From the NCBI GenBank assembly GCA_902770835.1, contig CACXUM010000001.1:1-64000 (forward strand): DNA of 64,000 bases, in the 5' to 3' direction. Position numbers and translations under genes: made by a program. Below are positions 1-11,806 of the stretch, piece after piece; position 1 is the stretch's first letter; every line of letters starts with the position of its first letter. The notes under the pieces are model-generated. The model was not told the origin of the DNA and made no database searches. It was given only the letters and a program-made list of their open reading frames with translations. This DNA comes from an uncultured Bacteroidia bacterium. Its GTDB lineage: Bacteria; Bacteroidota; Bacteroidia; Bacteroidales; F082.

Positions 1-2793
1 GCCGAAGGCATATTGCCTGCTGCAGTGACCCAACAGGGTGTCACCGTGCAAAAAAGCGTCAACTCCATCCTGCAAATCCAGTCTTTGGAGAGTACCGACG
101 ACAGATTTGACCAGAAGTTTATTATCAACTACTTGGACATCAATGTGATACCGCGTATTAGCCGTATCACAGGTGTGGGCAGTATCAACCTCCTCGGCGA
201 TACCTACGGCGTGCGTATCTGGATCAAACCGGATGTGATGGCCTCATACGGCGTCACCAGGGAGGAGATTATCAATGCCATCAATGAACAGCATTTGGTG
301 TCGCCCGTGGGTAGCATCGAGAGCACGGTAAACAAGATGGATATTGAGTTCAAGGGACAACTCAGTGAAATGAGCGAGTTTGGTGAAATCATCCTGCGTG
401 CCACCCCCGACGGTGAGGTTTTGCGCTTGAGAGACGTAGCCGACGTGGAGTTTGGAACCAAGACGTACTCCTTCCGTTCGAAGGTGGACGGACATCCCGG
501 AGCAATGTTCTTCGTCAAGCAGGCACCGGGTTCCAACGCTACAGAAGTCAACGCGGAAATCGACAAGGTGATCAAGGAAATCTCAAAGTCGTTGCCTGCC
601 GGTTTGGAATTCAAGCAGATGGAGACCTCCGATGACTTCCTTTACGCCTCCATCCACAATGTGGTCGAAACCCTTATCATCGCCATCGTCCTCGTTATCC
701 TCATTGTGTATCTGTTCTTGCAGGATTTCAAGGCGACTTTGATTCCCTCGATTTCCATCATCGTGTCATTGGTGGGCACCTTCGCCATTGTGTGGGCATT
801 GGGCTATTCGCTCAACCTAATCACGCTGTTCGCCTTGGTGTTGGCCATCGGAACCGTCGTGGACGATGCCATTGTGGTCGTCGAGGCAGTGATGACGAAG
901 ATGGAGACAGGCAAATACACCGCCGCTGCTGCCACCAGCGAGGCACTCCATGAAGTGACGGCAGCCGCTATTTCAACCACTTTGGTGTTTGTCGCCGTGT
1001 TTATCCCCGTGACCTTCATTTCGGGAACACAAGGCACCTTCTTCAAGCAGTTCGGTTTCATCATGTCAGGCTCGGTGTGTCTTTCCACACTTTCGGCCTT
1101 GACCATCTGTCCGGCCCTTTGCGCTCTTTTGTTCAAACCCAAAAAAGAAGGCGAAAAAGAGCGGAAGGGAGTCAGTTATTACGTCAAGCAAGCATACGAT
1201 GTGGCTTTCAATGCCCTGTTGGGCAAGTATATGAAAGGCGTGGGCAAATTTATCAAGCGTCCTGCTTTTTCTTGGATTCTGCTGGTGATTTTCGGATTGG
1301 GTATGGTATGGTTGATGAAGACCGCCCAATCGGAACTCGTTCCTCAGGAAGACCAGGGCTTCTTCTTCGTCGATGTGCAAACCGCGCCGGGCACCTATCT
1401 TAACGAAACGGAAACGGCTGTCAGTAAAATCGAGGAATACATCAAATCGATAGACGATGTCGAGTTGATAAGCACTGTGTCAGGTTACTCCATCATGAGC
1501 GGTGGTGCAGGCACCAACTATGGTACTGTGATGGTGCGTCTGAAAAACTGGGAGGAGCGCGACTTCTACAGCGTTGCCACCGTGGTGAACGACATCACTA
1601 TGTGGTCGATGGTAAATATGCCGGAGGCCAATGTCTCTGCATTCCAGATGCCCCAGATTCCGGGCTATGGTTCAGGCTCGGCGATAGAGTTGAACCTCCA
1701 GAACAGTTCGAGTGACGACGACGCCACCTTTATCAACTATGCGAAGGAGTTCACGCAGAAACTGAATGACCGTCCGGAGGTGGCCATAGCGGTGGCTTCC
1801 TATTCGGCCAACTATCCGAAATACGAGCTTACCGTTGATGTGCCAGCTTGCATAAGCAAGGGCATTTCGCCGAAGACTGTCGTCGAGACCATCGGCACCA
1901 ACCTCGCTGGTTCGTATATCGGCACCTACACCAAGTACGGCAAGGTTTACTATGTGATTGTGGAGGCGGGCGATGAGTATCGCATGGAGCTGAGCACGCT
2001 CAACAACATTTACGTTCAGGCGGGCACCGAGATGACTCCTGTGTCGGGGTTGGTCAACATCACCCCGATTTTGGGCACCTCGCAAGAGCGCCGTTTCAAC
2101 CTGTTTTCCTGCTACAACATCAACCTGATTGCAAGCCCGGGATATACCTCATCGCATGTGCGCACTGCCGTCGATGAGGTGATGGATGAGGTGTTCCCCG
2201 AAGGCTATAGTTACGAGTTCGGCGGTATGGCACGTGAGGAGGCTGCCAACGCGGGTTCAAACACCACCGCCATCATTTATGCCATCGCGGTATTGTTGGT
2301 CTACCTCATTCTCGCCGTGTTGTATAACTCAGTGTTTATCCCCTTCGCGGTGCTGTTGTCCATCCCGTTTGGTATCTTTGGCGCTTACTTGTCGGTTCGC
2401 CCCTTGGAGTCGCTGATGGGTGTGGGTGTCAATGTATATGTGCAAGTGGGTGTCATCATGTTGATGGGTTTGGCGGCCAAGACAGCCATTCTTATCACCG
2501 AGTTTGCCGTGCAGAAACGCAAGGAGGGCATGTCGATTTACGATGCTGCCATTGGTGCTTGCCAAGACCGTCTGCGTCCTATCCTGATGACCGTTTTGAC
2601 CATGATTATCGGTATGATCCCGCTGATTGTGGGCACGGGCGCAGGTGCCGTGGGCAACAAGTCGCTGTCCATCGCTGTGGTGGGCGGTATGACGGTGGCT
2701 ATCATCGCCATCCTGTTCGTCACGCCGGCTCTGTATATCGTGTTCCAGAAGATTCACGAGCGTTTGACACCCGACAAAGATGATGAAGAATAA
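1..2793 (+). CDS. RND-family efflux transporter, inner-membrane pump (5' end outside window)
   Basis: This is the C-terminal part of a tripartite efflux pump of the HAE-1 (AcrB/MexB-like) family, which exports drugs or hydrophobic compounds using the proton gradient. The frame is open from base 1, and the first visible residues (AEGILPAAVTQQGV) match the porter region about 120 residues into AcrB, so the start lies upstream. The proton-relay aspartates are in GTVVDDAIVVVEA (visible residues about 283-295), and the lysine helix is in GLAAKTAILITEFA. About 930 residues are visible, with hydrophobic helices in two clusters as expected. The outer-membrane factor follows after 7 nt, so the two are co-transcribed; the periplasmic adaptor gene is probably just upstream. 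Substrate is not predictable. Confidence 0.95.
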   Translation, partial: AEGILPAAVTQQGVTVQKSVNSILQIQSLESTDDRFDQKFIINYLDINVIPRISRITGVGSINLLGDTYGVRIWIKPDVMASYGVTREEIINAINEQHLVSPVGSIESTVNKMDIEFKGQLSEMSEFGEIILRATPDGEVLRLRDVADVEFGTKTYSFRSKVDGHPGAMFFVKQAPGSNATEVNAEIDKVIKEISKSLPAGLEFKQMETSDDFLYASIHNVVETLIIAIVLVILIVYLFLQDFKATLIPSISIIVSLVGTFAIVWALGYSLNLITLFALVLAIGTVVDDAIVVVEAVMTKMETGKYTAAAATSEALHEVTAAAISTTLVFVAVFIPVTFISGTQGTFFKQFGFIMSGSVCLSTLSALTICPALCALLFKPKKEGEKERKGVSYYVKQAYDVAFNALLGKYMKGVGKFIKRPAFSWILLVIFGLGMVWLMKTAQSELVPQEDQGFFFVDVQTAPGTYLNETETAVSKIEEYIKSIDDVELISTVSGYSIMSGGAGTNYGTVMVRLKNWEERDFYSVATVVNDITMWSMVNMPEANVSAFQMPQIPGYGSGSAIELNLQNSSSDDDATFINYAKEFTQKLNDRPEVAIAVASYSANYPKYELTVDVPACISKGISPKTVVETIGTNLAGSYIGTYTKYGKVYYVIVEAGDEYRMELSTLNNIYVQAGTEMTPVSGLVNITPILGTSQERRFNLFSCYNINLIASPGYTSSHVRTAVDEVMDEVFPEGYSYEFGGMAREEAANAGSNTTAIIYAIAVLLVYLILAVLYNSVFIPFAVLLSIPFGIFGAYLSVRPLESLMGVGVNVYVQVGVIMLMGLAAKTAILITEFAVQKRKEGMSIYDAAIGACQDRLRPILMTVLTMIIGMIPLIVGTGAGAVGNKSLSIAVVGGMTVAIIAILFVTPALYIVFQKIHERLTPDKDDEE

Positions 2794-2800
2794 ACATTAA

Positions 2801-4159
2801 ATGATGATTTCTATGAAAAGGTATATAATATTGATATTCGCAGGGTTGCTGCTGCTTCCGGGCTGCAATCTCTATAAGAAATACGAGTCGAATGTCACCG
2901 TCCAAGACAACATTTTGGGCGAAGTGATTAATCCGCAAGACACCACATCGATGGGAGATATGGGTTGGCGCGATGTTTTCAAAGACCCCTTACTCCAACG
3001 ACTCATCGAAACGGCTTGGGCCAACAACACCGACATGCGCACCACGCAACTCACCATCGAGCAGGCGCAAAACGAGGTGAGGTCAGCCAAATGGGGCTAT
3101 GCGCCCACCTTGGCGTTTGCCCCCAATGCCTCCTATAATTATCAGGGCGGAGCTGGTATCTACAATGTCCAAATTCCCGTGAGGGCCAGTTGGCAGTTGG
3201 GCATTTTCGGCCAGAACCGGAGCAAGATTCGTTCAGCCAAGGCAAAACTCGCTTACAATGAAAATTATCGTCAAGCAGTGCAAGTCGACTTGGCCGCCAA
3301 CGTCGCCAACCTTTATTACAATTTGGTGATGCTCGACCGCCAGTTGGAAATTTCCGAAGCGACCGAAAAACTGTATGAAGAGTCTTACAACACCACGCAG
3401 GCCTTGTTTCAGGCAGGCACCTACAACAGCCCCGCTGTGTATGAAATGCAGGCTTCGTTGGAGGCTTTGCGTGCAGATATTGTGACTTTGCGCTACAATA
3501 TCGTTATCACTGAGGCTGCGCTCTGCCAGTTGCTCGCCGAGCCGCCGCACCACATTGAGCGTTCCACATTCGACAAGTTTGAAATGCCCGAACAGATTCA
3601 TCTCGGTTTGCCCATCCGCTTGCTTGGTGCCCGTCCCGATGTCCGTATGGCCGAGAGCAATATGGAAATTGCTTATTACACCACCCAGCAGGCGCGTCAG
3701 TCGTTCTATCCTTCGCTCAGCATTGATGGTTTGTTCGGCTATGCTGGCACATTCAACGCCCTTGGCCTCATCGGGCAGGCCGTTGGCTCGTTGACGCAGC
3801 CTATCTTGCAAGGTGGACAACTCACAGCGCAACTCCGCAATGCCAAAGCCGAGCAAGAGAAGGCCCGCTTGGAGTTCGTCCAGACCCTTTACGACGCTGG
3901 TAGCGAGGTGTATCAATACAAGAAAGCCATCGAAACGGTAGAAGAAAAGACCAGCCACATCGACATCCGCGTCAATGCCTTGCAAGAGGCTTTTTCGGCC
4001 ACATCAGAGTTGATGAACCACGGCTCGACCACCTATTTGGAGGTTCTCACCGCGCAAGAATCATTGCTTTCGGCTCAACTCTCACAAGTGGAGAACCAAA
4101 ACGATATGATACAAGCACTCATTAACCTTTATACCGCATTGGGCGGGTTTGGGAAGTGA
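2801..4159 (+). CDS. TolC/OprM-like outer-membrane efflux lipoprotein
   Basis: Outer-membrane factor of the pump encoded just upstream; trimers of this family form the exit duct. The protein is 452 residues, close to the usual size of NodT-type factors. The N-terminus has a hydrophobic signal ending in a lipobox (LLPGC), so it should be lipid-anchored. Two long helical repeat halves can be seen, with the family signature LLGARPDVRMAE near residues 276-287. The ATG at 2801 is followed by other in-frame ATGs, of which 2813 (MKRYI) is an equally good start for the signal peptide. Its distance of 7 nt from the pump gene indicates one operon. Confidence 0.93.
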   Translation: MMISMKRYIILIFAGLLLLPGCNLYKKYESNVTVQDNILGEVINPQDTTSMGDMGWRDVFKDPLLQRLIETAWANNTDMRTTQLTIEQAQNEVRSAKWGYAPTLAFAPNASYNYQGGAGIYNVQIPVRASWQLGIFGQNRSKIRSAKAKLAYNENYRQAVQVDLAANVANLYYNLVMLDRQLEISEATEKLYEESYNTTQALFQAGTYNSPAVYEMQASLEALRADIVTLRYNIVITEAALCQLLAEPPHHIERSTFDKFEMPEQIHLGLPIRLLGARPDVRMAESNMEIAYYTTQQARQSFYPSLSIDGLFGYAGTFNALGLIGQAVGSLTQPILQGGQLTAQLRNAKAEQEKARLEFVQTLYDAGSEVYQYKKAIETVEEKTSHIDIRVNALQEAFSATSELMNHGSTTYLEVLTAQESLLSAQLSQVENQNDMIQALINLYTALGGFGK

Positions 4160-4235: not shown

Positions 4236-4353
4236 GTATTGGCGATGCGGATGGACTACCGGTTTTCCCCCATTTTTCGCGGGAAAGGCCTTATGTGTTA
4301 CCATTCTGAGCCAAAAATGGGAAAATTGAGCCTGAAATTATTATTCAACAATA

Positions 4354-4380
4354 AATTTACCTAATTTTGCTCGGTAAATT
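4354..4380 (+). promoter_or_regulatory. Promoter of the type III R-M genes with an overlapping inverted repeat
   Basis: A Bacteroidetes-type -7 box, TAATTTTG, is at 4362-4369. It is enclosed by perfect 8-bp inverted-repeat arms, AATTTACC (4354-4361) and GGTAAATT (4373-4380). No clear -33 TTG is seen. A protein bound to this palindrome would block the promoter, so it may be an operator for self-control of the R-M system. That role is inferred. Confidence 0.5.
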
Positions 4381-4391
4381 GGGAAAACAGT

Positions 4392-6293
4392 ATGGACGGA
4401 AAATCGCAAACACCGCAAGAGGAACGGATAAAGATACTGCAATCGCTTATGCCTGAGGTATTTGACGAGGGCAAAATTGATTGGGAGAAACTGAAAGCAA
4501 CGCTTGGCGAGGAGGTGAATTTCGCCAACGAGCGTTATGTGCTGAATTGGGCAGGCAAAAGCGATGCTTTCCGTGTCATGCAGCAACCTTCGTCGGCTAC
4601 CTTGGTGCCTTGCCGCGAAGAATCCGTTGACTTTGACCAAACCGAAAACATCTTTATCGAAGGCGAGAATATGGAAGTGCTGAAAGTGCTCCAAAAGAGT
4701 TATTTCGGAAAAGTGAAGATGATATATATCGACCCGCCGTATAATACTGGAAATGATTCGTTTATCTATCCCGACAAGTTTTCCGAAACCAAGGAAGAGT
4801 ATCAGCGGCGAGTGGGCGACAAGGACGAGGAAGGCTATATGACCCGCGAGGGTATGTTCCGCAAAAACAGCAAGGAGAACGGGCAATACCATAGCAACTG
4901 GCTCTGTATGATGATGCCGCGCCTCTATTTGGCCAAGGCTTTGTTGCGTGAAGACGGCGTGATTTTCGTTTCCATCGACGACAACGAAGTGCATAACCTT
5001 CGTTTGCTGATGAATGAGATTTTCGGGGAGGAGAATTTTTTAGTTTCGGTAGTTTGGGAAAAGAGATATACGCGTAGTAATAACGCCAAAACATTTACTA
5101 CTTTGACAGAAAGTATATTGGTTTATCGGAAATCAGAAGTTGTTTCCATCATAAAAGAACCTCGTAATGAAAAAGCAGATTCGATTTATTCAAATCCAGA
5201 TAACGATCCAAGAGGAGTTTGGACAAGCGTTTCTTATGTGAATCCTGCAACCAAAGAACAACGCCCCAATTTGTCTTATCCGTTATGGAATCCTATTCTG
5301 AAGAAGGAGGTTGTTCATCCGACAAATGCCTGGAAATTTGAAAAGTCTAATTATGAAAAACATGTGGAAGAAAATAGGCTTTATTGGGGTAAAAACGGTG
5401 AGAATATATATCCTCGATTAAAGAAGTTTCTGTCAGAAATGGAAGGAGGAATGGTTCCTGTTGATTTATGGAAACACGAGGATACAGGAACAACAGATCA
5501 AGGAAGTAAAGAATTGGAAAACTTAATGGGTGGGAAGTTCTTTGATTTCCCCAAACCTGTTTCACTAATAAAACGTGCATTGTCACTTATCATTAACGAT
5601 GATGAGAAAGACGGTTTATACCTAGACTTTTTTGCAGGGACATCACCTACTGCCCAAGCAATTATGGAATTAAACCAAACAGACGGCGGCCATCGCAAAT
5701 TCATTTGTGTGCAGTTGCCCGAATTGTGCGACGAAAAGAGCGAGGCTTTCAAGGCTGGCTACAAGACCATTGCGGAAATTGGCAAGGAAAGGATTCGCAG
5801 AGCGGGGGCGAAAATCCGCAAGGAAGTGGAAGACGAGCAAGCCAAACAAAAAGAAAAACTTCCCTTCGGAGAAGAACCGACGATTAAGATGCCGGATTTG
5901 GGCTTCAAGGTGTTCAAGTTGTCGGAAAGCAACTTCAAGCAATGGCGTAAGGTAAAAGGCTCCGAAAATGAGGAATGGAAGTTGCAGATTGAGGATTCGC
6001 TTCATCCTATGGCAGAGATTGCCACGAAAAACAATATGGTGTATGAGTTGCTGCTCAGGAGCGGCAAGAGCCTGAACAGCACCATCGAACACCGTAACGG
6101 TTTCTACGCCATCAATGGCAAGGAACTGATACTGATGCTCGAAACCGCCACGCAAGAATTGGTGGATGCCATTCGCGCCGAGCATCCGCAAAAAGTAATC
6201 ACCTTAGACAGCCTGTTCGAAGGCAACGACCAACTGAAAACCAACACTGCCCTTCAGATGAGAGACGCTGGAGTGGAGTTTAGGAAGATATGA
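4392..6293 (+). CDS. mod: Type III restriction-modification system, DNA methyltransferase subunit (Mod)
   Basis: Adenine-specific DNA methyltransferase of the beta group, the modification and recognition subunit of a type III system; its restriction partner is the res gene at 8144. The catalytic motif IV is DPPYNTGND at residues 114-122. The AdoMet-binding motif I comes later, near residue 410, as DFFAGTSPTAQA; the usual form in this family is closer to FAGSGTT or FSGSATT, so the loop is a variant. The 633 residues fit the family. The middle third, about residues 215-420 (5040-5650), is visibly AT-richer than both ends and should be the target-recognition region, which suggests it was exchanged by recombination. 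The ATG follows the promoter at 4362. Confidence 0.93.
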   Translation: MDGKSQTPQEERIKILQSLMPEVFDEGKIDWEKLKATLGEEVNFANERYVLNWAGKSDAFRVMQQPSSATLVPCREESVDFDQTENIFIEGENMEVLKVLQKSYFGKVKMIYIDPPYNTGNDSFIYPDKFSETKEEYQRRVGDKDEEGYMTREGMFRKNSKENGQYHSNWLCMMMPRLYLAKALLREDGVIFVSIDDNEVHNLRLLMNEIFGEENFLVSVVWEKRYTRSNNAKTFTTLTESILVYRKSEVVSIIKEPRNEKADSIYSNPDNDPRGVWTSVSYVNPATKEQRPNLSYPLWNPILKKEVVHPTNAWKFEKSNYEKHVEENRLYWGKNGENIYPRLKKFLSEMEGGMVPVDLWKHEDTGTTDQGSKELENLMGGKFFDFPKPVSLIKRALSLIINDDEKDGLYLDFFAGTSPTAQAIMELNQTDGGHRKFICVQLPELCDEKSEAFKAGYKTIAEIGKERIRRAGAKIRKEVEDEQAKQKEKLPFGEEPTIKMPDLGFKVFKLSESNFKQWRKVKGSENEEWKLQIEDSLHPMAEIATKNNMVYELLLRSGKSLNSTIEHRNGFYAINGKELILMLETATQELVDAIRAEHPQKVITLDSLFEGNDQLKTNTALQMRDAGVEFRKI

Positions 6294-6326
6294 TAGATTA
6301 TCCTTTCACAAAATTAGTAATAACAG

Positions 6327-7789
6327 ATGAAAGCACTACTTGATACAAATATCATCATCCATCGGGAAGCGAATAGAATAGTTTCTCAGGACATCGGGAT
6401 TCTTTATCGTTGGTTGGATAGAGGGAAGTACACAAAATGTATTCATTCTGCAACAATTGATGAGATTAAAAAGAATCCAAACAAAGAAACGGTTAGATTC
6501 CTTCACCATTGCAAAAAGAAGTACAGGTCGTTTCAGATAAGATGGACTCGACTGAAAATGATAAAATTGATACCTTGCTTTTGAATGAATTGTTTGTTGG
6601 TAGGGTTGATATACTAATTACCGAGGATAAAAAAATTCATCGTAAAGCGGCAGAGTTAAATTTGTCAGACAAGGTTTTCACCATTGATGCTTTTCTTGAA
6701 AAAGTATTTGCTGAGCATCCTAATTTGGTGGATTATAAGGTTCTGAACGTTCAGAAATTAAAGTTTGGGAAAATCGACCTTAATGATAAGTTTTTTGATA
6801 GTTTAAAGGATGATTATCCTGGATTTGACAAATGGTTTATCAAAAAATATGATGATGAGGCGTATATAACCATAAATTCAAAAAACGGGATGTTACTTTC
6901 GTTTCTTTATTTGAAAGTTGAAGGAACGGATGAAGACTATTCGAATGTCAATCCTGTTTTGCCGCCCAAGAAGCGATTAAAAGTTGGCACTTTTAAGGTG
7001 ATAAACAATGGCTTTCGTTTAGGTGAGCGTTTTTTGAAGATTATCTTTGATAATGCGTTGAAAAACAAGGTTGATGAGATTTATGTAACCATTTTTGATA
7101 AGCGAGATGAGCAAAGGCGTTTAATAGATTTATTGGAACAATGGGGTTTTGTCTTTTGGGGAATGAAAAAAGGGGAAAGGGTATATGTTAGAGATTTCCG
7201 TCCAAAAGTTGATTTTGCAAATTTACGAAAAACATTTCCTTATATTTCAGATGATAGAAACATCTATATTGTTCCGATTTATCCTGAATACCATACGGAG
7301 TTATTACCTGATTCCATACTAAATACGGAATCACCAGAAGAGTTTGTTGAGGATTTTCCGCATCGTAATGCAATTGGTAAGGTGTATGTTTCATGGGCGT
7401 TGGAACCGCATCCAATTAAAGGAGATATATTGGTTTTCTATCGGACAGGAGGTTATTACAAGAGTGTTGTCACAACTATTGGACTGGTTGAAGGTTTACG
7501 TTATGATTTTGCGGACGAAGAAGATTTTGTCCAATATTGTAGGAAAGGCAGCGTTTTTCCAGAGAAAGACTTGAGAGCCATGTGGAATTATCGTGATGGC
7601 AGGCCTTTTGTTGTAAGTTTCCTATATGTTTATTCTTTCCCACATAGGATTAACATGAAGGAGTTGATAGAATTAAATGTTTTGGCGGGGGTTAATGATG
7701 CCCCGCGCGGTTTTAAGCGTATTTCGAAAGAACAATTTTTGACAATTATAAAAGAGACAAAAAGTGAAGACAGTTTTATTATCCATTAA
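6327..7789 (+). CDS. PIN-domain ribonuclease fused to GNAT and PUA-like (EVE/ASCH-type) domains; reading frame split by a -1 shift
   Basis: Two frames together give one protein of about 487 residues. Frame 1 (6327-6584) starts MKALLDTNIII, the first acidic strand of a PIN domain. Frame 2, entered near 6513-6520 and ending at 7789, carries the rest: NDKIDTLLLNEL and the second catalytic segment DILITEDKKIH, then a GNAT-like segment (GTFKVINNGFRLGERFL to the RVYVRDF strand), then a C-terminal PUA-like region with GDILVFYRTGG. The shift falls in the A5 run of GCAAAAAGAAG (6511-6521). One more A would restore a single frame, and a -1 ribosomal slip on C-AAA-AAG would do the same. So the gene is either broken, misread or frameshift-expressed. 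It is AT-rich compared with mod and res around it, and the next gene overlaps it by 26 nt. A role with the R-M system is inferred from position. Confidence 0.7.
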
Positions 7790-8138
7790 GCCCGAATTTG
7801 CGGAAAAGATATTTGACGGAACTAAAAAATACGAATTCCGTAAATCCATCTTTAAGAATTCAGATGTCCAGAAAGTCATCGTTTATGCTTCATCTCCTGT
7901 TCAGAAGGTTATTGGTGAGTTCTCAATTGTGGATATTTTGAATGATGATATTGAAACTATTTGGAAAAAAACCGCGCTTCAGTCTGGTATAACACACGAC
8001 TTTTATTTGTCATATTTTGCTAATAAAGAAAAAGCATACGCGATTAAAATTGGTAAAACTACGCGATATAAGAAGGCTCGGGCTTTGAGTGACTTCAATT
8101 TGAGTTTTGCCCCTCAATCATTTGCTTATTTATCGTAA
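7764..8138 (+). CDS. ASCH-domain protein
   Basis: Small (124-residue) protein of the ASCH family, a PUA-like fold thought to bind RNA or modified nucleotides. The start of the domain is seen in MKTVLLSIKPEFAEKIFDG, followed by the family signature GxKxxExR as GTKKYEFRK (residues 19-27). The start is GTG at 7764, inside the last codons of the PIN-GNAT gene (26-nt overlap), which implies translational coupling. The res gene begins 5 nt after its stop. Its position between mod and res suggests it serves the restriction system, perhaps as a sensor of modified bases. That is a guess from context, since ASCH proteins also occur alone. Confidence 0.8.
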   Translation: MKTVLLSIKPEFAEKIFDGTKKYEFRKSIFKNSDVQKVIVYASSPVQKVIGEFSIVDILNDDIETIWKKTALQSGITHDFYLSYFANKEKAYAIKIGKTTRYKKARALSDFNLSFAPQSFAYLS

Positions 8139-8143
8139 TTGTT

Positions 8144-10789
8144 ATGAAACTCTCCTTCGAATCCAATCTTCAGTATCAGCAGGAAGCCATTCAAGCGGTT
8201 GTCGGGCTCTTTGAGGGGCAGGCTCAGGACGAGTCTGTGTTTCAATACGATTTGAGTGAACAGCAGGCGAGTTTGATAGATGGTGTTGGGAATGATTTGG
8301 TGTTGTCGGAAGAGCAGATGCTTTCCAACTTGCAAAATGTGCAACGTCAAAATGAAATCACGCCGTCAGAGCAATTGGACGGGATGCACTTCTCAATCGA
8401 GATGGAAACCGGCACGGGCAAGACCTACGTCTATTTGCGCACAATCTATGAGTTGAACAAGCAATATGGATTCATGAAGTTTGTGATCGTTGTTCCATCC
8501 GTCCCGATTCGTGAGGGCGTGTTGAAAAACCTGCAAATCACGCATGAGCATTTCCAAACGCTATACGATAACACACCTATTCGCTTCTATGTTTACGACC
8601 GCAATAAAATATCGCAATTGAGAGGCTTTGCGGCAGGAGATAATATCGAAGTGCTTGTCATCAATATTGATTCTTTCGCCAAAGACGAGAATGTCATCAA
8701 TAAGCCCAACGACAAGCTGAACGGGCAGGAGCCAATCAATTTCATCAAGCAGGTTCAGCCTATTGTCATTGTGGACGAGCCGCAAAATATGGAGTCGGAG
8801 AAAAGGGCGGCGGCTATCAAGAATCTGAATCCGCTGTGTACCTTGCGTTATTCAGCCACGCATCGCAATCGCTATAACCTGATTTACAGCCTAAACCCCG
8901 TGAAGGCTTACGATTTGGGATTGGTCAAGCAAATAGAGGTGGATTCGGTGCTGGAAGAGAATGCCTTGAATGGCGCTTTTGTGGCATTGGAATCCATTAC
9001 CGCGACCAAGACAAAAGTCACCGCTAAAATCTCCATCGATGTCAACGACAAAAGCGGTGTCAAACGAAAATCGGTCACGGTTCGGGCGGGCGACGACCTA
9101 TACGCAAAAAGCGAGAATCGCGAAATATACCGCAACGGCTATATTGTTGAGGAAATTGATGCCTCAAACGGATGTGTTGTTTTTTCAAATGGTGACACGC
9201 TTTATCAAGGCCAGCGCAAGGATGAAATGAATGATGAGGTGATGAAATTTCAGATTCGCCGCACTGTTGAGGAACATCTGCGTAAGGAATTGAAACTGAA
9301 CAGGCAAGGAATAAAGGTGTTGTCTTTGTTTTTCATCGATAGGGTAGCCAATTATCGTGCATACGATGAGCACGGCAATGAGGTGAAAGGAAAATTCGCT
9401 GTTTGGTTTGAGGAGATTTATTCGGAATTGATTGAACGCCCTGAGTTCCAGTCACTGAATCAGTATCCTTTGGATAAGATTCATAACGGCTATTTCTCCC
9501 AGGACAAGAAAGGTCGCGTAAAAGACACTTCTGGTGAAACACAAGCCGATGACGACACGTATAATCTGATAATGAGGGATAAAGAAACACTGCTGGATAT
9601 GAAGAATCCGCTCCGTTTCATTTTCTCGCATACAGCATTACGAGAAGGCTGGGACAATCCGAATGTTTTTCAAATCTGCACTTTGAACGAAACGAAATCG
9701 GAAATCAAGAAACGCCAGGAAATTGGTCGGGGTTTGCGTTTGCCTGTCAATCAGGAAGGTGTGCGTTGTTACGACAGGAACATCAACCGTTTGACGGTGG
9801 TTGCCAACGAATCTTACAATGATTTTGCCAAGGCCTTGCAAACCGAGTTGCAGGAGGATTGTGGAGTTGACTTCGGCAACCGTATCAAGCCTAAACGTGA
9901 TAGGGTTTCAGTGAAGTACAAGAAGGGATTTGAGGCAGACCCACTTTTCCTCTCTATTTGGGAGAAACTGAAGGCTAAAACCACTTATCGCGTGAATTTC
10001 GATACCGACGTTCTCATCGAAAAAGCCGGCAAAGAAATCAAGGAAATGCCTCGCATTGTGGCACCGACCATTCGTTCTGTGAAAACGGAAATTGTCATCA
10101 CCGAAGAAGGTGTGACAACGGAATACAAAGGCGACAAACTTACTACCCATTCGTCAGATTATTTCATTCCCGACATACTGGGTTATGTTCAGAATCGTAC
10201 CGAGTTGACCCGTTCAACCATTTGGAAAATCTTGGGGAAGTCAGGCCGCTTGGATGATTTGGCTGTCAATCCGCAACTGTTTATGGATATGGTGGTGGAT
10301 AAAATCAAAATAGTGTTGCAAGATTTGATGATTGACGGCATTGAGTATCACAAAATTGGCGATTCGGATTACGAAATGCGACTCTTTGAAGAGCAAGAAC
10401 TTGAAATCTATCTGAATGATTTCACGTTCAAGGTTTCAAGGACGGACAAAACCATTTATGAAGAATATGTTCCTTTGGATTCTTCAGTGGAAAACAAGTT
10501 TGCCCGCGATTGCGAAACGAGCGACCAAGTGAAATACTATTTCAAGTTGCCGGAATGGTTCAAAATTCCCACTCCAATTGGAAGTTACAATCCCGATTGG
10601 GCAGTCGTGTTTGAAGATGAAAAGAAGGTGTATTTTGTCGCCGAAACCAAAGATACAGGAACGCCAAAGGTGGATTTGAACAAACTTCATCCAAGCGAAA
10701 GAAAGAAAATCCAATGCGGGGAGGCTCATTTCAAGCAGTTTGAGGGGTTGGAATATCGCGTTGTGAGCAAAGTGGGGGATTTGGTTTGA
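8144..10789 (+). CDS. res: Type III restriction-modification system, helicase-nuclease subunit (Res)
   Basis: The restriction subunit: a superfamily 2 ATPase that moves along DNA and cuts after meeting another complex. Walker A is METGTGKTY (GTGKT at residues 90-94). Motif II is VDEPQ (residues 210-214), the type III form. Motif VI is RQEIGRGLRLP near residue 525. The C-terminal endonuclease of the PD-(D/E)xK class is NPDWAVVF near residue 815 with AETK about 17 residues on. The 881 residues are somewhat shorter than many Res proteins, but all motifs are present, so it looks functional. It follows the ASCH gene by 5 nt and is the last gene of the unit. Confidence 0.94.
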   Translation: MKLSFESNLQYQQEAIQAVVGLFEGQAQDESVFQYDLSEQQASLIDGVGNDLVLSEEQMLSNLQNVQRQNEITPSEQLDGMHFSIEMETGTGKTYVYLRTIYELNKQYGFMKFVIVVPSVPIREGVLKNLQITHEHFQTLYDNTPIRFYVYDRNKISQLRGFAAGDNIEVLVINIDSFAKDENVINKPNDKLNGQEPINFIKQVQPIVIVDEPQNMESEKRAAAIKNLNPLCTLRYSATHRNRYNLIYSLNPVKAYDLGLVKQIEVDSVLEENALNGAFVALESITATKTKVTAKISIDVNDKSGVKRKSVTVRAGDDLYAKSENREIYRNGYIVEEIDASNGCVVFSNGDTLYQGQRKDEMNDEVMKFQIRRTVEEHLRKELKLNRQGIKVLSLFFIDRVANYRAYDEHGNEVKGKFAVWFEEIYSELIERPEFQSLNQYPLDKIHNGYFSQDKKGRVKDTSGETQADDDTYNLIMRDKETLLDMKNPLRFIFSHTALREGWDNPNVFQICTLNETKSEIKKRQEIGRGLRLPVNQEGVRCYDRNINRLTVVANESYNDFAKALQTELQEDCGVDFGNRIKPKRDRVSVKYKKGFEADPLFLSIWEKLKAKTTYRVNFDTDVLIEKAGKEIKEMPRIVAPTIRSVKTEIVITEEGVTTEYKGDKLTTHSSDYFIPDILGYVQNRTELTRSTIWKILGKSGRLDDLAVNPQLFMDMVVDKIKIVLQDLMIDGIEYHKIGDSDYEMRLFEEQELEIYLNDFTFKVSRTDKTIYEEYVPLDSSVENKFARDCETSDQVKYYFKLPEWFKIPTPIGSYNPDWAVVFEDEKKVYFVAETKDTGTPKVDLNKLHPSERKKIQCGEAHFKQFEGLEYRVVSKVGDLV

Positions 10790-10821
10790 GTTTTCGTGTT
10801 ATCGTTTGCCCACAAAAAAAA

Positions 10822-10861
10822 CCACAATCCGCAGACAACCTGCAAATTGTGGCCGTTTTTT
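10822..10861. terminator. Bidirectional terminator between res and the zeta-like kinase unit
   Basis: Arms CCACAAT (10822-10828) and ATTGTGG (10846-10852), with an inner GCAG/CTGC stem, have an A-run on the left and a T-run on the right. The hairpin can therefore end both rightward res transcripts and the leftward unit that stops at 10880. Confidence 0.8.
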
Positions 10862-10879
10862 CTATGTGACGAATAGTTT

Positions 10880-11080
10880 TTATTCCTGTTCCATCATGGC
10901 TCTGACTTCCTTGGCCTTTACGGTGTAGATGTTGCCGTTGGCGTCGCAGAAGCAGAAGGTGCCGTTGTGGCGGCAGCGCATGGTGAGCAGGCGTTGCATC
11001 GAGAGGTCGAGGCCGCTCATCAATTTCTTGGTGAAGGACGAAACTTCATTCTTCTTTGCATTCACTGTTACTGTTGTCAT
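10880..11080 (-). CDS. Small protein overlapping the zeta-like kinase gene, unknown function
   Basis: A 66-residue protein starting MTTVTVNAKKNEVSSF, rich in Lys, Ser and Met, with no membrane segment. The ATG at 11080 lies inside the end of the kinase gene, whose stop is at 11046, so the two overlap by 35 nt and are probably translated together. No family is recognised. Its small size and coupling to a toxin-like kinase suggest a regulator or antitoxin, but it is encoded after the kinase and shows no DNA-binding motif, so that is only a possibility. A longer 129-residue reading of the same frame has no better start and runs into the kinase gene. Confidence 0.55.
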   Translation of the reverse strand: MTTVTVNAKKNEVSSFTKKLMSGLDLSMQRLLTMRCRHNGTFCFCDANGNIYTVKAKEVRAMMEQE

Positions 11081-11639
11081 ATTGTCTGATTTTTTTGAAT
11101 TTTTCTTCGTTGTAAAACTTGATGGATTTGATGTTTCCTTCGGCGATGACCTCGGAGGGCATGATGCTGTTGTCGATGAACAGGAAGTAGTCGACGACGG
11201 GGCAATAAAGATTGAAAAGGTTCTTGATGCCCGCCTTGTAACGCCTGCGGATGATACTGTCGTCCACATGATGGCCGCCGTGCTTCACACGCTCCGCCAC
11301 GCGCTTGATGGCCAAGTCGGGGCTTTGAAGCCAGAAATAGATGAGGCTGGCTTTGTAGCCTTCCTCGCGGGCTTTCTTGATGAGTGCGTGATAGGATTTT
11401 GCGGCCAAGGTGGTCTCGATGGCAAAGTCGGCTTTGTCAGCGATGAGGGTCTTGATGCGCGACAGCATCAGGCGGCCTGCGGCGACCTTGGCGCCGTCGG
11501 GGTTGAGCGGGGAGAGGCCCTTCGCGATTTCGTCGCAGTTGACGAACTCCTTGCATTGAAGCGTCTCGGGCAAAACCGTCAGTGAGGCGGTTGTTTTTCC
11601 TGCTCCGTTGCAGCCTGATATGATATATAAACTCGGCAT
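11046..11639 (-). CDS. Zeta-toxin-like P-loop kinase
   Basis: A 197-residue P-loop NTPase of the zeta toxin group, whose members phosphorylate UDP-GlcNAc or other small molecules. The N-terminus is MPSLYIISGCNGAGKTT, with Walker A at residues 9-17. CDEIAKGLSPLNPDG follows in the place of the substrate-contacting aspartate, then the conserved ETTLAAKSY segment and HGGHHVDDSIIRRRYKAG, the basic helix typical of the chromosomal form. The start was taken as ATG 11639; a TTG one codon before also exists. Chromosomal members of this group in Bacteroidetes often stand alone and need not be toxins. Here only a 66-residue downstream gene overlaps it. Confidence 0.85.
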   Translation of the reverse strand: MPSLYIISGCNGAGKTTASLTVLPETLQCKEFVNCDEIAKGLSPLNPDGAKVAAGRLMLSRIKTLIADKADFAIETTLAAKSYHALIKKAREEGYKASLIYFWLQSPDLAIKRVAERVKHGGHHVDDSIIRRRYKAGIKNLFNLYCPVVDYFLFIDNSIMPSEVIAEGNIKSIKFYNEEKFKKIRQYDNSNSECKEE

Positions 11640-11806
11640 CAAATAAAAATCTGCTCGTTTTCAATTGGCATTTTTCGTGCCAAAACTGGCGGCAAAGATA
11701 CAACATTTGTGAACAAGTCAACACTTTTCCACACTTTTCCACGATATTTTTTTGAACGATGGTTGTTAATTGGCTGAAAATCAAGAAAAACTCAATTCAA
11801 ATATTG

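What the first reader, a model, noticed from the sequence alone, without database searches (positions are those of the whole stretch)
4392..10789. PIN-GNAT-PUA-like and ASCH genes nested inside a type III R-M system
A type III system normally has just mod and res. Here two extra genes lie between them, read in the same direction, with a 26-nt overlap and a 5-nt gap, so the four behave as one operon. One combines a nuclease fold (PIN), an acetyltransferase fold and a C-terminal PUA-like domain. The other is an ASCH protein, also PUA-like. PUA-like domains (ASCH, EVE) are known to be linked to readers of modified bases or RNA. The extra genes are AT-rich compared with their neighbours, so they may be an inserted module. 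The pair may extend R-M into an RNA-cutting or abortive response when phage DNA is sensed. The combined function is inference.
Basis: partly seen in the sequence, partly recalled or inferred. Interest (0 to 1): 0.7.

Follow-up and report, generated by a model that had tools for sequence, protein, structure and literature searches.

The report
Swappable defence cargo inside R-M operon
Between the two genes of a bacterial DNA-cutting defence system lies a cargo slot; here it holds a known pair of candidate anti-virus genes (one broken), while related bacteria carry different defence-like genes in the same spot.

Summary
The observation mostly holds. A PIN-GNAT-EVE gene and an ASCH gene sit between mod and res of a type III R-M system, same strand, 26-nt overlap, 5-nt gap. 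One correction: the PIN-GNAT-EVE gene is broken. Two relatives have 40 nt that the window lacks inside PIN, so the PIN start and the GNAT-EVE part lie in different frames. The pair is not new: PADLOC lists it as PDC-M11A/B, and Bell et al. 2020 describe PIN-GNAT-EVE+ASCH operons near type I R-M. It looks autonomous: ASCH lies within three genes in 82 of 88 loci, an R-M gene was detected within six genes in only 25 of 88 (a lower bound).

The more interesting object is the slot. In 57 of 65 captured Bacteroidota mod-then-res systems the interval is filled, with 43 cargo clusters. Against three same-genus relatives, homology stops at the mod stop and resumes at the res start, the cargo being unrelated; the probable recognition region of mod is replaced too. 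Five slots hold an internal remnant of a res start, in four followed by mod 3' sequence, as if modules recombine and stack. Embedding in type I R-M is published; I saw no description of this type III slot, but the key preprint was not readable. Cargo function is untested.

The parts
4346..4391 (.). upstream flank; together with the first codons of mod (4346-4449) shared with the G018 site (L010)
   Evidence: blastn 87.5% over 104 nt
4392..6293 (+). type III mod (DNA methyltransferase), 633 aa
   Evidence: PADLOC MTase_III 4.5e-192, Pfam N6_N4_Mtase 7.9e-29
5040..5621 (+). part of mod without nucleotide alignment to same-genus L130-L132, probably the target recognition domain (inferred; the 3' limit is 5621, 5648 or 5663 depending on the relative)
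   Evidence: alignments end at 5039 and resume at 5622/5664/5649; identity in 60-nt bins there 0.42-0.70
6294..8143 (.). cargo slot between the mod stop and the res start
   Evidence: homology to L130, L131, L132 ends at 6293/6291/6291 and resumes at 8144/8143/8143
6327..6584 (+). 5' fragment of the PIN-GNAT-EVE gene (start of PIN), out of frame with the rest
   Evidence: PDC-M11A 9.3e-23; 40 nt missing between 6494 and 6495 against L003 and L004
6509..7789 (+). rest of PIN plus GNAT and EVE/PUA-like domains; 426-aa open frame with possible internal starts
   Evidence: PDC-M11A 7.6e-185; model of an intact relative
7764..8138 (+). ASCH protein, 124 aa, GTG start
   Evidence: Pfam ASCH 4.2e-05, PDC-M11B 6.2e-50
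8144..10789 (+). type III res (helicase-nuclease), 881 aa
   Evidence: REase_III E=0; ResIII 1.2e-15, RE_endonuc 4.2e-34
10816..11055 (.). downstream flank shared with the G018 site
   Evidence: blastn 92.1% over 241 nt

Best explanation
This is a type III R-M operon whose mod-res interval serves as a cargo slot, here filled by the two-gene PIN-GNAT-EVE/ASCH module (PDC-M11). Shown: cargo in this slot is almost always same-strand, mostly starts within 30 nt of mod and often overlaps the res start, and in three same-genus comparisons differs as a block between the mod stop and the res start while mod and res stay homologous. Inferred: exchange is by homologous recombination through the conserved mod and res genes (the probable recognition region of mod is swapped too), and expression is tied to the R-M operon. 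Inferred for this cargo: the ASCH and EVE domains bind modified nucleic acid, and the GNAT (and PIN when intact) act on tRNA/RNA as a back-up, growth-arresting defence when restriction fails. In this genome the PIN part is disrupted, so at most a GNAT-EVE form plus ASCH is likely to work.
For: Breakpoints: L130, L131, L132 align to the window up to 6293/6291/6291 and again from 8144/8143/8143 (sequences); their cargo is PHP/SMC-like+AlbA_2, type IIG-like+227 aa, DarT+DarG. L133 and L168 have Res 94.5% identical and cargo of different clusters. Slot filled in 57 of 65 captured mod-then-res systems; genes abut in 5 of 5 res-then-mod systems. 95 same-strand against 4 opposite-strand cargo ORFs; first cargo within 30 nt of mod in 48 of 57, last overlaps res in 38 of 57. 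94 cargo ORFs of 100 aa or more in 43 clusters, 28 of them seen in one locus only. 8 of 10 randomly drawn cargo ORFs match PADLOC against 1 of 10 mechanically chosen first ORFs downstream of res. Module: ASCH within three genes in 82 of 88 loci.
Against: No expression, phage or biochemical data. PDC families were found by guilt-by-embedding (PMC12988326, passages), so PDC matches are partly circular. Control ORFs downstream of res were called mechanically and some may not be genes. The 77 loci were chosen (mostly full-length Res with room upstream) and include near-duplicates (L158/L166, L198/L199/L206, several of L172-L185). Cargo follows the Res tree in part: 45 changes against 54-61 in 200 label shuffles, 37 being the least possible for 38 states. 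The PIN gene here is broken. Most copies of the pair are not near a detected R-M gene. Some cargo does not look defensive (TPR protein, DUF488, truncated ORFs). Empty slots are common elsewhere: 5 of 13 in a second group, 7 of 14 plasmid records.
Confidence: 0.7

Rival explanations
1. The pair is a self-sufficient toxin-antitoxin or defence unit that happened to land in an R-M operon; there is no functional link to R-M beyond shared transcription.
For: 63 of 88 loci have no R-M gene detected within six genes. In G018 the pair is intact without mod/res at the orthologous site. It occurs beside type I, type II (HaeIII-like, L011) and type III systems.
Against: Recurrent embedding between mod and res: window, L020-L022 and the type III system of L076, whose Res is only 20% identical to the window's. 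The R-M profiles used are few, so distant R-M genes are missed.
Confidence: 0.5
2. Ordinary defence-island clustering: genes accumulate anywhere near R-M genes, and the mod-res interval is nothing special.
For: Defence genes cluster (PMC12255303, passages). Extra genes also lie 5' of mod in type III systems (PMC8259958, passages); a helicase-related gene and a DUF4391 gene are annotated 5' of mod in L229, L233, L234, L235, L236 and L238.
Against: Cargo is bounded by the mod stop and res start in three same-genus comparisons, is nearly all same-strand and absent in 5 of 5 res-then-mod systems. PADLOC matched 8 of 10 random cargo ORFs and 1 of 10 first ORFs downstream of res. The interval upstream of mod was not tested as a control.
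Confidence: 0.25
3. The window module is a decaying relic: the broken PIN shows that the cargo is non-functional here.
For: 40 nt missing and frame broken in PIN; other slots also hold short or truncated cargo (L176, L214, L215).
Against: GNAT-EVE and ASCH frames are open. Shorter GNAT-EVE frames without PIN occur in two same-genus genomes (367 and 375 aa, each match with one stop inside), and GNAT-EVE proteins are described by Bell et al.. An assembly error is possible.
Confidence: 0.4

Closest known systems
PIN-GNAT-EVE + ASCH operons (Bell et al. 2020, PMC7641849; passages read)
   Same: Domain order and ASCH partner; often an AAA_17 gene (a cluster whose representative is AAA_17 lies upstream in 13 of the 88 loci); association with R-M
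   Different: Reported near type I R-M; the term 'type III' was not found in that main text. Here the pair lies inside a type III operon and its PIN is broken
PDC-M11 in PADLOC-DB 2.0.0 (by its naming from Payne et al. 2024, a preprint not seen; known from citations)
   Same: Both proteins match the A and B models strongly
   Different: A candidate; I saw no test of its function
DarTG2 embedded in a type I R-M island of E. coli (PMC12255303, passages)
   Same: Defence genes between R-M subunit genes; the authors call hsdS-hsdR a potential recombination hotspot; the L132 slot carries a DarT/DarG pair
   Different: Type I; here type III, many cargo kinds, boundaries at the mod stop and res start
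PrrC in the type IC EcoprrI locus (PMC12707154, passages)
   Same: RNA-cutting effector gene inside an R-M locus, activated when restriction is inhibited
   Different: Different protein and R-M type; no such trigger is shown here
Type III systems with an extra helicase-like gene 5' of mod (PMC8259958, passages)
   Same: Type III operon with an extra gene
   Different: The gene lies 5' of mod, not between mod and res, and is conserved rather than swapped

Membership tests
Type III R-M system | Mod of the N6/N4 methylase family | tested here: met
   MTase_III 4.5e-192; N6_N4_Mtase 7.9e-29
Type III R-M system | Res with helicase and C-terminal endonuclease domains | tested here: met
   ResIII 1.2e-15, RE_endonuc 4.2e-34
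Type III R-M system | Modification and cleavage activity | not testable with these tools
   needs methylome and cleavage assays
PDC-M11 / PIN-GNAT-EVE + ASCH | Sequence match to both subunit models | tested here: met
   PDC-M11A 7.6e-185 and PDC-M11B 6.2e-50
PDC-M11 / PIN-GNAT-EVE + ASCH | Intact PIN domain fused to GNAT-EVE | tested here: not met
   frame broken in the window; intact in relatives such as L010-L013 and in the 42 rows chosen
PDC-M11 / PIN-GNAT-EVE + ASCH | GNAT and PUA-like folds | tested here: met
   on intact relative L017, not on the window's own product: Foldseek to GNAT (2oh1_A 2.2e-05) and ZmASCH (5y6c_A 2.5e-05)
PDC-M11 / PIN-GNAT-EVE + ASCH | ASCH gene next to it | tested here: met
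   window; 82 of 88 loci within three genes
PDC-M11 / PIN-GNAT-EVE + ASCH | Anti-phage activity | not testable with these tools
   no published test seen
Defence gene embedded in an R-M system | Cargo between R-M genes, same strand, operon-like spacing | tested here: met
   window and 57 of 65 Bacteroidota mod-then-res systems
PrrC-like R-M-linked back-up effector | Activation on inhibition of the host R-M enzyme | not testable with these tools
   mechanism offered by analogy only

The most novel reading that the evidence does not exclude
The mod-res interval of type III R-M operons is a dedicated plug-in bay. Cargo modules are swapped, and sometimes stacked, by recombination through the ends of mod and res. 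Five slots keep an internal res start (26-101 nt from its first codon). In four of them mod 3' sequence follows, directly in L134, L185 and L193 and after 29 nt in L195, reaching or nearly reaching the mod stop in L134, L193 and L195. That is the join left when two mod-cargo-res units, or a circle of one, recombine. Being placed between protective mod and dangerous res, any effector there becomes a back-up for restriction.
Probability: 0.35. Interest if true: 0.8.

Novelty: new variant of a known kind. Interest (0 to 1): 0.6.

Why it matters
If the slot is general, two conserved genes delimit a place where new anti-phage genes can be read off by position, in more than one phylum, with ends defined almost to the base. 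It would also make testable why bacteria put back-up defences between the protective and the cutting gene of an R-M system, and how such modules move.

Tried and rejected
Intact PIN-GNAT-PUA gene in the window: rejected on the frame break. The pair as an obligate R-M part: rejected on its distribution and on the G018 site. A remnant of R-M ends inside the window's own slot: looked for, not found. Promoter/terminator scan: 15 promoter-like and 9 terminator-like sites against 14.0 and 6.7 in shuffles, so uninformative. Counting R-M genes by Pfam family in whole genomes was dropped because hits could not be tied to the loci. The first try at another phylum (centre G744, the genome of L093) returned the same places as and adds nothing; (centre G748) gave different genomes, whose phylum is not named. 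The end-remnant test had seven of 61 slots with no shuffle of 200 reaching the score at one end or both; L173 and L197 (mod end only, narrow margins) I treat as possible chance, since two ends of 61 slots were tested. Cargo independent of the Res tree: not borne out; cargo labels need 45 changes against a mean of 58 in shuffles, so close relatives often share cargo.

Full report
Observation. The window holds type III mod (4392-6293), a PIN-GNAT-EVE region (6327-7789), ASCH (7764-8138) and res (8144-10789), all on +. G+C is 0.351 and 0.344 for the two inner genes against 0.444 and 0.446 for mod and res. The PIN-GNAT-EVE gene is not intact. The PIN start (6327-6584) and the rest (6509-7789) are in different frames, and two relatives, L003 and L004, have 40 nt that the window lacks between 6494 and 6495. 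An assembly error cannot be excluded.

The pair. PADLOC calls the proteins PDC-M11A (7.6e-185) and PDC-M11B (6.2e-50). A model of the intact relative L017 (42-row alignment, mean pLDDT 83.9) matches GNAT enzymes and the ASCH protein of Zymomonas in the PDB; the 50 hits listed include no PIN entry that I recognise. PIN is supported by weak Pfam hits and by Bell et al. 2020 (PMC7641849, passages), who describe PIN-GNAT-EVE with ASCH, often with AAA_17, near type I R-M, and propose a toxin-antitoxin role. Of 199 relatives searched, 8 (own included) have a homologue. The species-genome scan kept the best 80 of 152 confirmed relatives. With the window, seven relatives' regions and two plasmids, and after dropping two duplicates (L017, L024), 88 loci were examined. 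ASCH lies within three genes in 82 of 88 (not in L014, L021, L023, L048, L070, L082). R-M genes were detected within six genes in 25 of 88: type I 17, type III 4, Mod only 1 (L076, whose neighbour is REase_III by PADLOC, 1.2e-136), C5 methylase 3. These labels come from profiles built here from few seeds and are lower bounds.

A third partner without a name. In 29 of these loci a protein of about 343 aa lies one or two genes upstream, always on the same strand. The representatives scanned have no Pfam match at 0.1 and no PADLOC match at 0.01. It is absent from the window. In L020-L022 the order is mod, 136 aa, 334 aa (this family), PIN-GNAT-EVE, ASCH, res (in L021 an opposite-strand ORF was called where ASCH is expected; in L022 the mod frame is split in two).

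The slot. I searched 396 relatives with Res; 66 (own included) matched at E<=1e-60. I searched 345 Bacteroidota genomes with a Res profile; 58 (own included) matched at E<=1e-80. From the places listed I fetched 38 and 39 loci, choosing mostly full-length Res with room upstream. Of these 77, 65 have mod then res, 5 have res then mod, and in 7 mod was not captured. Of the 65, 57 are filled and 8 empty (15/0, 12/4 and 30/4 in the three batches). In all 5 res-then-mod systems the genes abut (gaps -14 to +15). Cargo in the 57 is 95 same-strand and 4 opposite-strand ORFs; the first starts within 30 nt of mod in 48 of 57, and the last overlaps res in 38 of 57. The 94 cargo ORFs of 100 aa or more form 43 clusters, 28 seen in one locus only (105 ORFs in 47 clusters with L020-L022 added). 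Of 20 cargo ORFs given to Pfam, 17 have a match at 0.001, among them DUF1016/YhcG nuclease, Fic, Schlafen AlbA_2, RhuM, DarT, macro domain, DUF4276, Abi_2, Abi_C, GmrSD, KilA-N, Bro-N, type IIG-like methylase, TPR and DUF488. PADLOC matched 9 of 10 cargo proteins that I chose and 8 of 10 drawn at random, against 1 of 10 drawn from first ORFs downstream of res; those control ORFs were called mechanically and some may not be genes. PDC names are partly circular, since those families were found by embedding; DarTG, AbiD and GmrSD are known on their own (recalled).

Exchange. Against L130, L131 and L132 (Res 88% identical) nucleotide homology runs from the start of mod, or a little upstream, to 5039, drops in what is probably the recognition domain, resumes to 6293/6291/6291, and returns at 8144/8143/8143. 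All four carry unrelated cargo. L133 and L168 have 94.5% identical Res and cargo of different clusters. On a FastTree tree of 69 Res with 38 cargo states the fewest changes are 45 (several long branches). The least possible is 37, and 200 label shuffles give 54-61. So cargo is partly inherited among close relatives, yet turns over often. The same modules recur on distant Res: PHP/SMC-like+AlbA in L130, L139, L174 and in L212/L213 of another group. Where shared, such cargo is mostly no more alike than the Res beside it (for example 51.6% and 52.9% against Res 68.2% for L130-L139), so recent transfer of these shared modules is not shown.

Orthologous site. In G018 the flanks match the window on both sides (4346-4449 at 87.5%, 10816-11055 at 92.1%). 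Between them are 19 codons of mod, an intact PIN-GNAT-EVE and ASCH, and a HARE-HTH protein instead of res. The G018 contig ends at the downstream flank. Another, distant type III Res lies elsewhere in that genome. So cargo and R-M genes can be lost separately.

Remnants. In 61 filled slots (57, window, L020-L022) I aligned the slot to its own res start and mod end, with 200 codon shuffles each. L134, L185, L193 and L195 exceed all shuffles for both ends, and L163 for the res start; L173 and L197 exceed them narrowly for the mod end alone. In the five, the res piece begins at codon 1. In L193 and L195 the mod piece ends at the stop codon; in L134 it ends one base short of it; in L185 about 60 nt before it. 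In L163, L185, L193 and L195 the remnant lies between two cargo genes; in L134 it lies between mod and its single cargo. L193 and L195 carry the same two cargo kinds and may be one event. In L134 the two pieces join at a shared 8-nt word, seen by eye in the alignments. This fits recombination between two mod-cargo-res units with loss of the inner res and mod. The window's slot has no such remnant.

Other groups. In a second, unnamed group (phylum of G748) 19 of 326 genomes matched; of 14 loci fetched, 8 are filled, 5 empty, 1 without mod. L223 is counted filled though its interval holds only an opposite-strand ORF, and L214 and L215 hold short ORFs. Of 14 plasmid records that I chose from 241 with a match, four have annotated genes other than methylases or transposases between mod and res (Chryseobacterium, a planctomycete, Rhizobium, Thiodictyon), Acinetobacter has 1.7 kb without a listed gene, Lactococcus has further methylase genes there, Monoglobus has a transposase and a second methylase before a short ORF, and seven are adjacent. 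So the slot is not only in Bacteroidota, but empty ones look commoner elsewhere.

What is known. Defence genes inside type I R-M loci are published (DarTG2, PMC12255303, passages; PrrC, PMC12707154, passages). Extra genes 5' of mod in type III systems are published (PMC8259958, passages). Text searches aimed at embedding or at genes between mod and res listed no paper that I recognised as describing the slot, and the passages I read of PMC8259958 and PMC3874151 do not; most listed papers were not opened. That library holds only open-licence papers, and the preprint of Payne et al. 2024 was not seen.

Verdict. The pair is a member of a known candidate defence kind, broken in this genome. The slot is a well-supported regularity in the loci examined; its function as a coupled back-up is inference.

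Noticed in passing
window 11046-11642 (-): Zeta-toxin-like P-loop protein (Pfam Zeta_toxin 8.9e-10) just downstream of res on the other strand; no PADLOC match at 0.01.
   Followed up: no
window 13-4159 (+): An RND-type efflux pump and an outer-membrane factor, judged by eye from the translations, lie upstream of mod.
   Followed up: no
L020:8990-9994 and relatives in 29 of 88 loci: Uncharacterised ~343-aa protein upstream of PIN-GNAT-EVE, always on the same strand, without Pfam or PADLOC match in the representatives scanned.
   Followed up: partly
L010:271-1230 (-): HARE-HTH protein (Pfam 2.7e-14) stands where res would be at the G018 site.
   Followed up: partly
L176:4044-4496 (-): A 150-aa cargo ORF matches the start of PDC-M59A and the end of PDC-M59B, as if cargo decays by internal deletion.
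   Followed up: no
L093: A contig titled Limnohabitans (a proteobacterium, recalled) lies in a genome whose phylum sample gives the same places as the window's phylum sample, so the record title is probably wrong.
   Followed up: no
L014, L015: Same-genus genomes G044 and G041 carry shorter GNAT-EVE frames without the PIN part.
   Followed up: partly
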